This document shows positions 37,388 through 41,769 of a DNA stretch of 64,000 nucleotides, piece by piece. Source of the DNA: Halomonas alkalicola (GTDB lineage Bacteria; Pseudomonadota; Gammaproteobacteria; Pseudomonadales; Halomonadaceae). Position numbers and translations under genes: made by a program. Location of the stretch: the NCBI RefSeq assembly GCF_030704205.1, contig NZ_CP131913.1, forward strand, positions 3,162,001 through 3,226,000, written 5' to 3'. The notes under the pieces were generated by a model. It made no database searches. It was not told the DNA's origin and was given only the letters and a program-made list of their open reading frames with translations. Position 1 is the first letter of the stretch; each line of letters opens with the position of its first letter.

Positions 37388-38008
37388 TCAGGCGCGGCTG
37401 ACCGCCCGGCGCACCCTGGGCAGGGCGCGGGCGACCGGGGGCAGGCGAGTCGCCATGATCAGCGCCGCGGCGACGGCATACATCACCCACTCCTTCAGGT
37501 CGGCACGCACGACCAAGAAGAAGTGCAGCAGGACCAGGCCGAGGATGGGGTAGGCGAGCCGGTGCAGCGGCTTCCAGCGCTTCCCCAGGCGGCGCATGGC
37601 CCAGTGGCTGGAGGTGGCGCCCAGCGCCATGAGGCCCAGCAGCGCCAGCATGCCGACGATGATGTAGGGCCGCTTGACCAGCTCGCTGCCGAGCAGCGCC
37701 CAGTCGAGCCCGAGAATGAACAGCGCATAGCTGAGCACGTGCAGGCAGGCGTAGGCGAGGGTCCAGAGCCCGAGCTGCCTGCGGATCAGGGTGAAGCCCT
37801 TCCAGCGGGTCAGGCGGGTCAGCGGCGTGAGGCTCAGGGTGAGCAGCAGCATCCAGAGCGCGCCGAGGCCGGTATTGAGCAGCAGGAAGCGCCCCGGTTC
37901 GGGGCCGGCGGCGTGGGTGGCCACCTGCCACGCCCATAGCGCGAGGGGCGCCAGCGCCGCCAGGAAGACCCCGCCGCGCCACAGCCACCAGCCATGCCTG
38001 GCCGTCAT
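37388..38008 (-). CDS. msrQ: Heme-binding membrane subunit MsrQ
   Basis: A 206-residue inner-membrane b-type cytochrome of the MsrPQ system. About six helices are visible, with LNTGLGALWMLLLTLSLTPL and conserved His residues in YACLHVLSYALF, GATSSHWAMRR and RLAYPILGLVLLHFFLVVR. It passes electrons from the respiratory chain to the periplasmic reductase MsrP. Its start shares one base with the msrP stop, so the two are translationally coupled. GC content is high like the chromosomal average, in contrast to the 5' half of msrP. Confidence 0.95.
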   Translation of the reverse strand: MTARHGWWLWRGGVFLAALAPLALWAWQVATHAAGPEPGRFLLLNTGLGALWMLLLTLSLTPLTRLTRWKGFTLIRRQLGLWTLAYACLHVLSYALFILGLDWALLGSELVKRPYIIVGMLALLGLMALGATSSHWAMRRLGKRWKPLHRLAYPILGLVLLHFFLVVRADLKEWVMYAVAAALIMATRLPPVARALPRVRRAVSRA

Positions 38009-39024
38009 CAGTAATGGGTCCTCAGGTCCAGCCCGGCATAGAGGCTCGCCACCTCGTCGGCATAGCCGTTGAACAGCTGAGTCTCGATGATGTTGGGCCG
38101 GAAGAGGGTGTTGGGCAGCCGACGCTCGGTGGCCTGGCTCCAGCGGGGGTGGTCCACGTCGGGGTTCACGTTGGCGTAGAAGCCGTACTCGTCGGGGGCG
38201 ATCTGCTGCCAGGTGTTCATCGGCTGCTCCTCGACCAGCGAGATGCGCACGATCGACTTGATGCTCTTGAAGCCGTACTTCCAGGGCACCACCAGCCGCA
38301 GGGGGGCGCCGTTCTGGTTGGGCAGCTCGCGACCGTACATGCCCATGGCCAGCAGCGTCAGCGGGTGCATGGCTTCGTCCAGGCGCAGTCCTTCCACGTA
38401 GGGCCAGTCGATGATCGAGAACGAGGAGCGCTGACCGCGCATCTGCTCCGGGTCTACCAGGGTTTCAAAGCGCACGTAGTTGGCTTTGCTGGTGGGGTCG
38501 GCACGCTTGATCACCTCGGCGAGGGGGATGCCCAGCCAGGGGATCACCATCGACCATGCCTCTACGCAGCGCAGGCGGTAGATACGCTCTTCAAACTGCG
38601 AGGGCCTGGCTAAGTCTTCCAGGGCAATACGCCCTCCGTTATTGACTTCGCCATCCACCACTACGCTCCAGGGCTGGGTTTCCAGGCTATCGGCATGACG
38701 GGCGGGGTCGCGCTTATCTGTGCCAAACTCGAAAAAATTGTTATAGCCACTGGCGTCATCAAAGGGCGTCAGCGCATCTTGTTCGGGATCGCTTGGGGTG
38801 ATGGCTCGCCACTGGGTATCGCTGATCTTTTCCTCAAGCCACGCAGGCGCGTTGCCTTCAGGTACATCCGAGTAGTCGGCATTGGCACTTACGTTACCGG
38901 GTAGGGCAAGCCCCGCGCCCAACCCGGCGATACCCCCCATGAAGCGTCGACGTGAAAGATAGATGGACTCTGGAGTGACATCGGATTCGTGCAGATCACT
39001 TGGCTTGGCAATCTTTATCAGCAT
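38008..39024 (-). CDS. msrP: Periplasmic methionine sulfoxide reductase, catalytic subunit MsrP
   Basis: A 338-residue molybdopterin enzyme that reduces oxidised methionines in periplasmic proteins. A Tat signal (SRRRFMGGIAGLGAGLALPG) is near residues 28-47. The molybdenum ligand Cys lies in RLRCVEAWSMVIPW near residue 153. GLRLDEAMHPLTLLAMGMYG and WKYGFKSIKSIVRI are family blocks. The ATG at 39022-39024 was chosen (GAGG 8 bases upstream); a GTG 12 bases earlier is possible. Base composition changes inside the gene near 38575: about 67 % GC towards the 3' end, about 52-58 % towards the start. It follows a two-component system by 97 bp. Confidence 0.96.
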   Translation of the reverse strand: MLIKIAKPSDLHESDVTPESIYLSRRRFMGGIAGLGAGLALPGNVSANADYSDVPEGNAPAWLEEKISDTQWRAITPSDPEQDALTPFDDASGYNNFFEFGTDKRDPARHADSLETQPWSVVVDGEVNNGGRIALEDLARPSQFEERIYRLRCVEAWSMVIPWLGIPLAEVIKRADPTSKANYVRFETLVDPEQMRGQRSSFSIIDWPYVEGLRLDEAMHPLTLLAMGMYGRELPNQNGAPLRLVVPWKYGFKSIKSIVRISLVEEQPMNTWQQIAPDEYGFYANVNPDVDHPRWSQATERRLPNTLFRPNIIETQLFNGYADEVASLYAGLDLRTHY

Positions 39025-39121
39025 CTGGCACCTCACACCGGGGGTAAGCCTGTCAATGACATGCTTGGTAGCGACTTCGCTCAGTTTGCATGAGATTTAT
39101 CACAGCCAGCTCCCCGGGTTA

Positions 39122-40612
39122 TTACGTGTTTATAACGTCAGATGAGTGGGAAGCGTACGCCGGTAATCGTATGCAGAAAGAGGCTCCCCCGGAGGCAAGG
39201 TTCTCAGCGCGGATATCGCCGCCCTGAAGCGTCATGATTCTGCGGGCGATCGCCAGCCCTAGCCCGGCATGGCCAGAGCCGTCAGTGGCTTCGCCGCGAT
39301 AGAAAGGATCAAAGATATGCGGTAGATCCTGTTCTGAAATACCCGTGCCGCTGTCCCGCACGCAGACCTCCGGTTCGCCACCCGCCTGGCCGACCACGAC
39401 GTCAATGCGACCTCCAGCAGGGCTGTAGGCAATGGCGTTGCTGATCAGGTTATCCAGTACGCGCTCGGTCATGGCCAGGTCGGCGTAGGCGGTCGGCAAC
39501 GCCGGATCTCCGCTCAGGGTTAGCGTCAACTGATTGTCACGAGCTGCCTGTTCGTGTTTCTGCACCACGTCGTGGACCAGTTCCGCCAGCGGGAAGGGCT
39601 CCGGCACGGGCTGTTTCTCCCTCGCCTCGAGGGCGGCAAGTTCGAAGAGCTCATCCACCAAGCGGCTCAACCGCCGGCCTTCCTTGAGCGCGATGTCGAG
39701 AAAGCGATCCTGCTCTTGCGGGCTGAGACGGTCACGTCGCAATTTCAGACTCTCGATATAGCCCTGCATGGACGCCAGCGGCGTGCGTAGATCATGGGAT
39801 ACCTGGGCGACCAGACGACGGCGCTGGGCATCCTTTTCCGTCAGCTGTTCGATCTGGCAGGCAATGCGGTGGGCCATTTCATCGAAGGTGACGCCCAGAT
39901 AGTCGATCTCATCACGCACCACGGGCCGCCTGCCGTGCTGTGGGCTGAGGCTCATGTCGCTGTTCTCGAATTCCTCCACTAGCCGCGTCAGCGATCTCAG
40001 CCGGCGGGTCAGCAGGCGGAAGATCGTCAGTCCTGCGATCATTGCCACCACCAGGCTCACCAGCAGCGCCCAGGCGCTCATCTCCAGCACTTTGCCGCCT
40101 CGGGCCATGGTTTCCGCCGCGTCGTATTCCTCACCCCGCAATACCACATAAAGATAACCTTCGGGATTCTCCGCCCCTGGCACCGGGGTGACGGAAAAGA
40201 CTTTCTGCCGGTCATGACTGCGGGGGTCGTCGCCGAGTAGCGGGTAGAGGTTCATGTCACTCATCAATCTATGTATGGGCGACAGTGAGACCTGGTTGCG
40301 TTTGATCTTCGTCGGGTCCGCGGAATAGGAGAGGATGGTGCCATCCAGGTCCAGCAGGTAGATCTCGATGCTGGGGTTGATCGTCATGTACAGAGCGAAC
40401 AGCTCTTCCAGGGCGCTACGGTCAAGTTCTCCTTCGCTGACCAGATTCCTGTCTGATACCAGGTTCTTGGCCAGATCCTGGTAAAGCGCCTGGTTGACCG
40501 AGGCGCTATATTCACGCAACGAATAGAGGCTGATGAAGGTATACAGTAGGCCGACAGCCAGTAACAATAAAAACAGGCCCAAGGACAGCCGTGTGTAGAG
40601 TGTCTTCAGCAT
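39122..40612 (-). CDS. Sensor histidine kinase
   Basis: A 496-residue membrane kinase. An N-terminal helix (LSLGLFLLLLAVGLLYTFIS) and a second near residues 175-200 flank a periplasmic sensing domain of about 145 residues. A HAMP domain follows. The phospho-acceptor His is in VAQVSHDLRTPLASMQGYIE near residue 275. The ATPase has the N box LDNLISNAIAYSPAGG, G1 DSGTGISEQDL and G2 GHAGLGLAIARRI. Four bases separate it from the response regulator gene, so they are a pair. Position beside msrPQ recalls HprS/YedV of E. coli, which senses reactive chlorine or peroxide; orthology is not established. Base composition is lower in GC than flanks. Confidence 0.92.
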   Translation of the reverse strand: MLKTLYTRLSLGLFLLLLAVGLLYTFISLYSLREYSASVNQALYQDLAKNLVSDRNLVSEGELDRSALEELFALYMTINPSIEIYLLDLDGTILSYSADPTKIKRNQVSLSPIHRLMSDMNLYPLLGDDPRSHDRQKVFSVTPVPGAENPEGYLYVVLRGEEYDAAETMARGGKVLEMSAWALLVSLVVAMIAGLTIFRLLTRRLRSLTRLVEEFENSDMSLSPQHGRRPVVRDEIDYLGVTFDEMAHRIACQIEQLTEKDAQRRRLVAQVSHDLRTPLASMQGYIESLKLRRDRLSPQEQDRFLDIALKEGRRLSRLVDELFELAALEAREKQPVPEPFPLAELVHDVVQKHEQAARDNQLTLTLSGDPALPTAYADLAMTERVLDNLISNAIAYSPAGGRIDVVVGQAGGEPEVCVRDSGTGISEQDLPHIFDPFYRGEATDGSGHAGLGLAIARRIMTLQGGDIRAENLASGGASFCIRLPAYASHSSDVINT

Positions 40613-40615
40613 GGA

Positions 40616-41317
40616 TCATTCACGGAAACGATAGCCCACCCCCCAAACCGTCTGGATAAACTCCGGTCTGGCTGGGTTCGTTTCGATCTTGCCCCGCAGG
40701 CGATTGATGTGGGTGTTGACGGTATGTTCGTAACCTTCGTGGCTGTAGCCCCACACGGTATCCAGTAGTTGGACACGGCTGAATACCCGCCCCGGATGGC
40801 TGGCAAAGTGCCAGAGCAGGTCAAACTCCCGCGCAGTAAGTTCGACTGGCTGATCCTTTACGAATACCCGACGGCGCAGTGGGTCAATACGCAGCCCATC
40901 GGCGGACAATTCTTCATTGCAGGTTGCTGCTGCCGCCGCAGATGCCATGGCATCCACGCGCCGGAACAAGGCCTTCACCCTCGCGGAGAGTTCGGCCACA
41001 CTGAAGGGTTTGGTAAGGTAATCATCTGCCCCCATTTCCAGGCCCAGCACTCGGTCCAGTTCACTGCCTTTGGCCGTCAGCATCAATACGGGGACGTAGC
41101 CAGGGCCCGAGCGGATTTCACGACACACCGACAGCCCGTCCATGCCGGGCAACATCAGGTCGAGGATTACCAGGTCGATATCCCCCTCACGAAAGCGCGT
41201 AAGACCGGTATCACCCCGTTCACAAAGAACGGGGTTCATACCAAGTTCGGTCACGTGCATGCTTACGAGTTCACCGATACCCGGGTTGTCTTCGACAATC
41301 AGTACGTTTCGCGTCAT
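40616..41317 (-). CDS. OmpR-family response regulator
   Basis: A 233-residue regulator. The receiver domain begins NVLIVEDNPGIGELVSMHVT, with the phosphorylated Asp in LVILDLMLPGMDG near residue 52 and the Lys in YLTKPFSVAEL near residue 102. A short Ala-rich linker leads to a winged-helix DNA-binding domain (LTAREFDLLWHFASHPGRVF, then EHTVNTHINRLRGKIE and VWGVGYRF). Its likely target is the array of 11-bp-phased half-sites at 41704-41769 (inference). It lies 55 bp downstream of the Met-rich gene and 3 bp upstream of its kinase. Confidence 0.94.
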   Translation of the reverse strand: MTRNVLIVEDNPGIGELVSMHVTELGMNPVLCERGDTGLTRFREGDIDLVILDLMLPGMDGLSVCREIRSGPGYVPVLMLTAKGSELDRVLGLEMGADDYLTKPFSVAELSARVKALFRRVDAMASAAAAATCNEELSADGLRIDPLRRRVFVKDQPVELTAREFDLLWHFASHPGRVFSRVQLLDTVWGYSHEGYEHTVNTHINRLRGKIETNPARPEFIQTVWGVGYRFRE

Positions 41318-41372
41318 GGGCTCCTTGCTCTAGGCACGTGAATGGCCGCGATGAAACCCGGGAGCCTGAGGT

Positions 41373-41636
41373 TTACATGCTCTCGCTTTCCATCTCTTCA
41401 TCCATGTCCATATCGTCTCCCATATCCATGTCGTCTTCCATGTCACCGTTCATTTCCATGTCGCTTTCCATTTCCATGGAGTCGGACATGCCTTCCCTTT
41501 TCATGTCGCTCTCGTCCATGGATTCATGCATGTCGTCTTCCATCATGCCCTCTTCGGACATCATTTCATCCGCCTGGCTGGCCGTTGTCATCAGGCTGAA
41601 GATACAGATTGCAGCAACTGCAGTGAACTTGCTCAT
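41373..41636 (-). CDS. Secreted Met/Asp/Glu-rich small protein (MrpX-like in composition)
   Basis: An 87-residue protein. The signal peptide (FTAVAAICIFSLMTTASQA) is cleaved after Ala-Ser-Gln-Ala, leaving a mature chain of 65 residues. Of these 19 are Met and 30 are Asp or Glu; only two are basic and none is Cys. Met mostly alternates with acidic residues (DMEDDMDMGDDMDMDEEM). GGAGGAG lies 9 bases before the ATG. A periplasmic Met-rich peptide repaired by an MsrP enzyme is known as MrpX in Azospira, where it scavenges hypochlorite. Composition and context match, but sequence orthology is not claimed. Metal (Cu/Ag) binding is an alternative. Confidence 0.85.
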   Translation of the reverse strand: MSKFTAVAAICIFSLMTTASQADEMMSEEGMMEDDMHESMDESDMKREGMSDSMEMESDMEMNGDMEDDMDMGDDMDMDEEMESESM

Positions 41637-41659
41637 AGTGATTTCTCCTCCGAAGATGA

Positions 41660-41680
41660 AGCCTGCCGGGCTGGCAGGCT
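41660..41680 (-). promoter_or_regulatory. 5'-leader hairpin of the Met-rich gene
   Basis: AGCCTGCC (41660-41667) pairs with GGCAGGCT (41673-41680) around a 5-base loop. The stem ends 7 bases before the GGAGGAG ribosome binding site (41646-41652), so it could protect the mRNA or tune translation. Confidence 0.5.
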
Positions 41681-41703
41681 CGAACCTATCGTGGATGCAC
41701 GGC

Positions 41704-41769
41704 ATCACGGGAGAATCACGGGGTGATTAAGAGTGTATCGCGCAAAGTTCACAAATGTATCACGGCCGG
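41704..41769. promoter_or_regulatory. Six half-sites phased at 11 bp (response-regulator operator)
   Basis: Half-sites start at 41704, 41715, 41726, 41737, 41748 and 41759, every 11 bp: ATCACGG, ATCACGG, ATTAAGA, ATCGCGC, TTCACAA, ATCACGG. The first, second and sixth are identical over seven bases. OmpR/PhoB-family regulators bind head-to-tail sites with 10-11 bp period. The array lies 68-133 bp upstream of the Met-rich start codon, next to a -10-like GATAGG on the minus strand at about 41686-41691. Confidence 0.65.

What the first reader, a model, noticed from the sequence alone, without database searches (positions are those of the whole stretch)
38008..41769. A regulated periplasmic methionine-oxidation defence unit: Met-rich secreted protein, two-component system and MsrPQ
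Seen: on one strand, in order, a 65-residue mature secreted protein with 19 Met and 30 acidic residues, an OmpR-type regulator, a sensor kinase, then msrP and msrQ. Known: MsrP reduces Met sulfoxide in the periplasm. In Azospira a Met-rich periplasmic peptide (MrpX) is oxidised by hypochlorite and recycled by an MsrP homologue, under a sigma/anti-sigma pair. E. coli msrPQ is under the HprSR (YedVW) two-component system. Inference: this locus joins both ideas, with a two-component system controlling a sacrificial Met-rich scavenger and its repair enzyme. I know of no description of this combination with this extremely acidic peptide. A Cu/Ag-binding role is the main alternative.
Basis: partly seen in the sequence, partly recalled or inferred. 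Interest (0 to 1): 0.82.

Follow-up and report, generated by a model that had tools for sequence, protein, structure and literature searches.

The report
Swappable methionine-oxidation defence operon
A salt-loving bacterium carries a five-gene set in which a two-part sensor appears to switch on a methionine-packed secreted protein and the enzymes that repair it after oxidation, and relatives keep the same sensor and methionine-packed protein but pair them with an unrelated repair enzyme.

Summary
On the minus strand, in order: a secreted Met-rich acidic protein (MRP), an OmpR-type regulator (RR), a sensor kinase (HK), msrP, msrQ. The order recurs in 14 of 25 family loci whose kinase N-terminal region is at least 78% identical (type I). 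A two-component-controlled Met-oxidation module is well supported by comparison, untested at the bench. The claim that the combination is undescribed fails: UPEC OrhK/OrhR controls MsrP-like, MsrQ-like and Met-rich genes (PMC8550376).

Beyond that: (1) GTGA boxes at 11-bp phase recur upstream across this gammaproteobacterial TCS family. (2) The same RR-HK lineage sits beside MsrPQ in Halomonas/Vreelandella but beside MsrAB in Marinobacter and Nitrincola; a distant second type pairs with an MsrP-like/cytochrome b561 set. The simplest tree reading is one replacement of MsrAB by MsrPQ, MRP kept. (3) In three genomes of one genus a Met-rich stretch is fused to MsrAB. (4) Sensor Met76 is invariant (82 of 82 outside the second type), where a Cys pair stands instead (22 of 22). 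(5) MxxM spacing is depleted and a crude scan saw no copper pump nearby, weakening the Cu/Ag alternative. The cassette shows signs of recombination with a junction inside msrP. Many class-wide members lack any Msr neighbour.

The parts
41705..41763 (-). promoter/operator region: GTGA/GCGA boxes at 11-bp phase (first base at 41763, 41752, 41741; 41730 reads TTAA; then 41719 and 41708)
   Evidence: in 23 of 25 type I loci; three-box pattern once in the 3.61 Mb genome; spacing and background controls
41373..41636 (-). MRP: secreted Met-rich acidic protein, 87 aa
40616..41317 (-). OmpR/PhoB-type response regulator
   Evidence: recognition-helix region strongly conserved in 104 aligned loci
39122..40612 (-). 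sensor histidine kinase; periplasmic sensor with invariant Met76 (codon 40385-40387), phospho-acceptor His273 (assigned by motif)
38008..39024 (-). msrP, molybdo-enzyme, Met-sulfoxide reductase, twin-arginine signal by eye
   Evidence: NF003767 473.4 bits, cut-off 207; 54% identical to E. coli MsrP
37388..38008 (-). msrQ, membrane haem partner
   Evidence: NF003831 229.8 bits, cut-off 130; 36% identical to E. coli MsrQ
38100..38550 (.). inferred recombination junction inside msrP: upstream matches G032 at 91-99%, downstream is closer to the TCS-less G004
   Evidence: GC shift

Best explanation
A two-component-controlled periplasmic methionine-redox module. The sensor kinase detects envelope oxidation, plausibly by oxidation of Met76 in its periplasmic domain (inferred). 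The regulator binds 11-bp-phased GTGA boxes upstream of MRP and turns on MRP-RR-HK-msrPQ (inferred from conserved sites). MRP, probably disordered, with 29% Met, is oxidised in place of functional proteins, and MsrP, fed by MsrQ from the respiratory chain, reduces it again (inferred from known families). Shown here by sequence: gene order, conserved upstream boxes, different reductases beside the same TCS lineage with MRP kept, a Met-rich/MsrAB fusion, and a recombination signature in msrP.
For: Five genes in one direction with conserved order. 23 of 25 type I loci have MsrPQ, 15 have MRP, 14 both. 11 of 11 Marinobacter loci and the one Nitrincola locus have MsrAB beside the same TCS (in L251 about 4 kb off), six of the Marinobacter with MRP. 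MsrPQ loci form one clade nested among MsrAB loci, with a reductase-less MRP-RR-HK locus as sister. Second type: MRP + cyt b561 + MsrP-like in 23 of 25 loci fetched. Met-rich stretch fused to MsrAB in three genomes of one genus. GTGA-N7-GTGA upstream in 24 of 25, 36 of 61 and 14 of 22 loci against 15 of 430, 77 of 974 and 6 of 359 control windows. Met76 in 82 of 82 non-type-II sensors aligned. A related kind of locus gives resistance to a peroxide in UPEC (PMC8550376) and to HOCl in Brucella (PMC8315932).
Against: No expression, binding or turnover data. 10 of 25 type I loci lack MRP. 47 of 60 class-wide loci show no Met-sulfoxide reductase within 5 kb (some stretches are cut by contig ends), while 27 of 60 have Spondin_N-like genes, so the TCS family is not devoted to Met repair everywhere. 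25 of 61 class-wide and 8 of 22 type II loci lack an exact GTGA-N7-GTGA pair in the stretch tested. The UPEC paper points to inverted repeats as the likely OrhR site, not direct repeats. No sigma-70 consensus promoter was found. The sensor model is mediocre (mean pLDDT 70.5). In the passages of PMC8550376 that I saw, oxidant tests name c3564 to c3567 mutants; the c3568 (Met-rich) deletion is named for hemolysis only, without effect.
Confidence: 0.75

Rival explanations
1. MRP is a periplasmic Cu(I)/Ag(I)-binding protein and MsrPQ protects its Met ligands, as MsrPQ protects CusF in E. coli.
For: E. coli msrPQ is also induced by copper through CusSR, and MsrP restores oxidised CusF (PMC9302797 abstract and passages). 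CusS sensor chains are among weak fold matches. MxxxM is enriched in type I MRPs (97 against 61.0).
Against: MxxM spacing is 6 observed against 61.6 expected in 15 type I MRPs and 0 against 60.8 in 23 type II MRPs; MxM 35 against 62.6 and 6 against 60.9; MxxxM is depleted in type II (10 against 60.7). One His and no Cys in the window protein. RR and HK fall below the heavy-metal models TIGR01387 (170.4 of 279.2) and TIGR01386 (160.1 of 292.55). No P-type ATPase or multicopper motif ORF in the stretches held for 60 MRP loci, 52 distinct (crude motif scan). The CusR/HprR box is a different sequence.
Confidence: 0.08
2. MRP is mainly a signalling partner of the kinase: its reduced or oxidised form binds the sensor and resets it, and scavenging is secondary.
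For: MRP lies upstream of RR-HK in the same order in Halomonas/Vreelandella, Marinobacter, Sedimenticola and a Rhodospirillales MAG, sometimes with no reductase found beside it (L118, Sedimenticola).
Against: In 10 of 25 type I loci MRP is missing while the sensor stays conserved, and 9 of the 10 keep the upstream motif. Mature MRP sequence and length drift, keeping composition. The fusion seen is to MsrAB, not to the kinase.
Confidence: 0.12
3. MRP is an acidic disordered protein with another job (Met store, chaperone or cation buffer) and its link to reductases is repair of an easily oxidised protein, not scavenging.
For: Very high acidity in type I and II; E. coli MsrP also repairs ordinary periplasmic proteins such as SurA (PMC9302797 passages).
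Against: Acidity is not conserved: four class-wide MRPs average 20% Asp+Glu and 19% Lys+Arg. What is shared is Met richness and few aromatic or bulky hydrophobic residues.
Confidence: 0.05

Closest known systems
UPEC OrhK/OrhR (c3564/c3565) with c3566-c3568
   Same: A two-component system directly activates an MsrQ-like, an MsrP-like and a Met-rich peptide gene; resistance to a peroxide (PMC8550376: abstract and passages).
   Different: UPEC enzymes are only 27.6% and 23.1% identical to MsrP and MsrQ (paper), whereas the window has MsrPQ above the family cut-offs. c3565 and c3566 do not cotranscribe (legend), whereas here the five genes lie head to tail. By gene content UPEC resembles my type II; I did not fetch it, so homology is untested.
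Azospira MrpX/YedY1 with SigF/NrsF; Brucella BcrX with BcrQP under BcrS/AbcS
   Same: Secreted Met-rich peptide plus an MsrP-type reductase, HOCl-linked (PMC8315932 abstract and passages, PMC4623255 passages; Melnyk 2015 not held, recalled and as cited there).
   Different: Regulated by ECF sigma/anti-sigma; here a two-component system lies between MRP and msrP.
E. coli HprSR-hiuH-msrPQ
   Same: Two-component control of msrPQ; sensing of oxidants through periplasmic Met of HprS (PMC10151825, PMC13367049 passages).
   Different: No Met-rich peptide annotated in the 9 kb seen; the sensor half gives no BLAST hit, RR 38% identical; operator differs.
Perchlorate island periplasmic MsrA/MsrB beside MrpX systems
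   Same: Two perchlorate islands hold msrA and msrB predicted to be exported, in the same functional group as the Met-cycling genes (PMC4623255 passage).
   Different: There they come in addition in an island; here the reductase differs behind one conserved TCS lineage.

Membership tests
MsrPQ | MsrP and MsrQ models above curated cut-off | tested here: met
   NF003767 473.4/207 bits; NF003831 229.8/130 bits
MsrPQ | Met-sulfoxide reductase activity | not testable with these tools
   inferred from family
MrpX-type Met-cycling system | small secreted Met-rich peptide beside MsrP | tested here: met
   mature 65 aa with 19 Met
MrpX-type Met-cycling system | control by an ECF sigma/anti-sigma pair in the locus | tested here: not met
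   RR-HK lies in the locus instead; the next two genes upstream are ABC-transporter parts, downstream an acetyltransferase and a lipoprotein. Sigma genes elsewhere in the genome were not searched
MrpX-type Met-cycling system | peptide oxidised and recycled in vivo | not testable with these tools
   -
HprSR | HprR model above cut-off | tested here: not met
   NF008567 149.9 against 353 bits
HprSR | homologous sensor domain | tested here: inconclusive
   no BLASTP hit of the HK N-terminal 235 residues to the HprS N-terminal 200; fold not compared
Heavy-metal TCS (CusRS/CopRS/SilRS) | cztR_silR_copR and cztS_silS_copS models above cut-off | tested here: not met
   170.4/279.2 and 160.1/292.55 bits
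OrhK/OrhR-c3566-c3568 | TCS + Met-rich peptide + molybdo-reductase pair in one locus | tested here: met
   gene content as described in PMC8550376
OrhK/OrhR-c3566-c3568 | sequence homology of the TCS | not tested
   UPEC locus not fetched because it adjoins a hemolysin operon

The most novel reading that the evidence does not exclude
One broadly spread gammaproteobacterial sensor lineage reads methionine oxidation directly through an invariant periplasmic Met76 (a Cys pair in the second type), and governs, by a shared GTGA-N7-GTGA operator, a plug-in Met redox buffer whose repair enzyme is exchangeable between three reductase systems (thiol MsrAB, molybdo MsrPQ, MsrP-like/cyt b561), up to physical fusion of the buffer to the enzyme.
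Probability: 0.4. Interest if true: 0.8.

Novelty: new variant of a known kind. Interest (0 to 1): 0.62.

Why it matters
Sacrificial Met-rich proteins are known from a few species. Here nature seems to have run the control: the sensor, operator and Met-rich protein stay while an enzyme of one family (MsrPQ) stands in for an unrelated one (MsrAB) with the same reaction. That points to Met-sulfoxide reduction as the selected function, and makes sensing by a single Met testable in non-pathogenic marine bacteria.

Tried and rejected

Literature searches for the combination; in the listings only the UPEC paper fits TCS + Met-rich + Msr; none of the 3 papers listed has a title or abstract start about a Met-rich/MsrAB fusion. 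Melnyk 2015 and El Hajj 2022 are not held.

Corrections and rows left out: GC3 of the msrP halves was out of frame and is replaced. 60 of 66 class genomes outside the family with a kinase hit were fetched; 25 of 39 distant family loci; 31 of the 80 loci (HK at least 51%); 104 of 110 loci in the alignment; 2 of 110 loci not oriented; 50 chosen RR+HK pairs (25 type I, 9 class-wide, 16 of the 31 named). MRP was called by my own thresholds (at least 10% Met, a hydrophobic N-terminal stretch, over 25% Asp+Glu+Lys; looser, 8%). Signal peptides are by eye or by that crude rule.
Full report
OBSERVATION. A good ribosome-binding sequence (GGAGGAG) precedes ATG 41636. The mature MRP (cleavage judged by eye) has 65 residues, 19 Met, 30 Asp+Glu, one His and no Cys. 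MsrP and MsrQ pass their curated models; MRP matches none. The genome search found one MRP and a second msrPQ elsewhere (G000:C1:347227). Neighbours are ABC-transporter genes upstream and an acetyltransferase and a lipoprotein downstream.

CONSERVATION IN THE FAMILY. MRP is found in 16 of 275 family genomes. The kinase N-terminal region is at least 78% identical in 25 of 275 genomes, then drops to 35% or less (64 of 275 pass E 1e-10). I call those 25 loci type I. 23 of 25 have MsrPQ downstream, 15 have MRP, 14 have both. One locus (L117) has an MsrAB with a signal-like N-terminus directly after the kinase instead; one (L118) has MRP-RR-HK and no reductase found. The sixteenth MRP genome (G233, 80% complete) has MRP beside only a short remnant of the RR (L119), and no kinase or MsrP hit. 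Ten of the 25 loci lack a detectable MRP (L107, L108, L110-L117); nine of these keep the upstream motif before the RR.

OPERATOR. Upstream of MRP, GTGA or GCGA boxes sit at exact 11-bp phase: offsets 0, 11, 22, 44 and 55, with TTAA at 33 in the window. I looked for the motif that spans boxes 11 and 22 and found it in 23 of 25 type I loci (not L117, L118). In those 23, box 0 and box 11 are GTGA in 23, box 22 GTGA/GCGA in 22, box 44 in 20, box 55 in 15; boxes 11 and 22 were part of the search, boxes 0, 44 and 55 were not. The three-box pattern occurs once in the 3.61 Mb genome, 0 in the reversed-pattern control. Across loci, GTGA-Nk-GTGA (either strand, about 1 kb upstream of the RR) peaks at k=7: totals 39, 52 and 27 in the type I, class-wide and distant-family sets, against at most 10 at any other k from 2 to 13. 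Loci with at least one such pair: 24 of 25, 36 of 61, 14 of 22; control windows from the same loci: 15 of 430, 77 of 974, 6 of 359. Most residues of the RR recognition-helix region (HTVN-HINRLR-K-E) are identical in all or nearly all of 104 aligned loci. The E. coli HprR/CusR box is a different inverted repeat (PMC9302797); the UPEC paper marks inverted repeats as the likely OrhR site, which I could not compare.

THE TCS FAMILY. The kinase region matches 68 of 369 genomes drawn from the class. I fetched 60 loci. Of 60, 12 have MsrA and/or MsrB hits within 5 kb, 1 has MsrPQ, 4 have a separate MRP, 27 have Spondin_N-like genes and 6 DUF1223-like genes (one representative of MsrAB, Spondin_N and DUF1223 each confirmed by Pfam). 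So the family is not limited to Met repair. Among distant kinases of the window's family, 23 of 25 fetched loci (of 39) carry MRP, a cytochrome b561 and an MsrP-like molybdo-protein, divergent from RR-HK (type II).

REDUCTASE SWAP. A scan of named genomes returned 80 loci; I examined the 31 with kinase identity of 51% or more. Halomonas/Vreelandella: 12 of 12 with MsrPQ, 8 with MRP (these overlap type I). Marinobacter: 11 of 11 with MsrA, 6 with MRP; Nitrincola: MsrA, no MRP. One search shows MsrA and MsrB motifs in one frame in all 12 of the latter, 11 of them with a signal-like N-terminus; in L251 the gene lies about 4 kb downstream. Sedimenticola (3 of 3) has MRP and no reductase found in the stretch held. 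A Rhodospirillales MAG (L269) has MRP and MsrAB; of three symbiont-type gammaproteobacteria (L263-L265) one has an MsrB hit, none MRP. In a tree of 50 RR+HK pairs, all MsrPQ loci form one clade (support 0.954) whose sister is the reductase-less L118 (0.95) and then Nitrincola with MsrAB (0.989), within a wider group with MsrAB (supports as printed after re-rooting). The simplest reading is one replacement of MsrAB by MsrPQ, with MRP kept.

FUSION. In three genomes of one genus (G406, G522, G620) MsrAB itself begins with a signal-like segment and a Met-rich repeat before the MsrA domain, in one open frame; the 14 other genomes of that order searched gave no such full-length match. These are close relatives, so probably one event. 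Locus L159, sister to these three in the trees, has a separate MRP and an MsrAB without the Met-rich part. Fusion of the two is the strongest single hint that they act together.

SENSOR. Met76 lies before a conserved INPSxExYLLD stretch. It is Met in 25 of 25 type I and 57 of 57 other non-type-II sensors; in type II it is Met in 3 of 22, and there two Cys (window positions 102 and 131) are present in 22 of 22. HprS senses through periplasmic Met (PMC10151825 passages), but BLAST shows no similarity between the sensor halves. That Met76 is the switch is inference.

COPPER. MxxM pairs are 6 observed to 61.6 expected in 15 type I MRPs and 0 to 60.8 in 23 type II; MxM 35 to 62.6 and 6 to 60.9; MxxxM 97 to 61.0 and 10 to 60.7 (residues shuffled within each protein, 300 times; the proteins are related and repetitive, so the counts are not independent). 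No P-type ATPase or multicopper-oxidase motif ORF in the stretches of 60 MRP loci (52 distinct, crude motifs).

HISTORY. A relative, G004, has the cysA-like gene, msrPQ and the same downstream genes without MRP-RR-HK; G020 and G022 also have close msrPQ (83-84% MsrP) without them in the stretches held. Window and G032 are 91-99% identical in 150-base bins from 41.85 to 38.25 kb, then fall to 81% and below (about 70-80%) through msrQ, where G004 is closer; G032 is also the closer one in much of the upstream transporter genes, so the other edge is not sharp. GC is 0.49 (MRP), 0.58 (RR), 0.59 (HK), 0.58 (msrP 5' half) against 0.64 (3' half), 0.72 (msrQ) and 0.67 (window). This fits a cassette exchanged by recombination with one crossover inside msrP; loss in G004 cannot be excluded. 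A genome flagged as the same species, G087, gave no hit for the kinase or MRP and only the other MsrP type.

PRIOR ART. UPEC OrhK/OrhR directly activates c3566-c3568 in response to peroxide (PMC8550376; abstract and passages). Brucella BcrS controls BcrXQP (PMC8315932; abstract and passages). Perchlorate islands hold MrpX/YedYZ and in two strains msrA/msrB predicted to be exported (PMC4623255 passages). The kind is therefore known; the swap, the fusion, the box array and the sensor split were not seen in the passages and listings I saw, within the searches named in Tried and rejected.

Noticed in passing
L165, L170, L171: Met-rich repeat fused to the N-terminus of an MsrAB with signal-like start, beside the same TCS and DUF1223.
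   Followed up: partly
L122-L124, L219-L238: Type II loci: RR-HK divergent from a Met-rich protein, cytochrome b561 and MsrP-like gene; sensor has a conserved Cys pair instead of Met76.
   Followed up: partly
class-wide loci, e.g. L160, L163, L180: Spondin_N-like genes, often in tandem, lie near the same TCS in 27 of 60 loci; function unknown.
   Followed up: no
G000:C1:347227-348189 (L031): Second full msrPQ (65% identity over 256 aligned residues of MsrP) in the same genome, without the GTGA motif in the scan.
   Followed up: partly
G000:C1:2256044-2256172 (L032): A 68-codon frame matching only the C-terminal end of MsrP; looks like a remnant.
   Followed up: no
L119 (G233): MRP beside a short RR remnant, no kinase or MsrP found in that genome by the searches made.
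   Followed up: no
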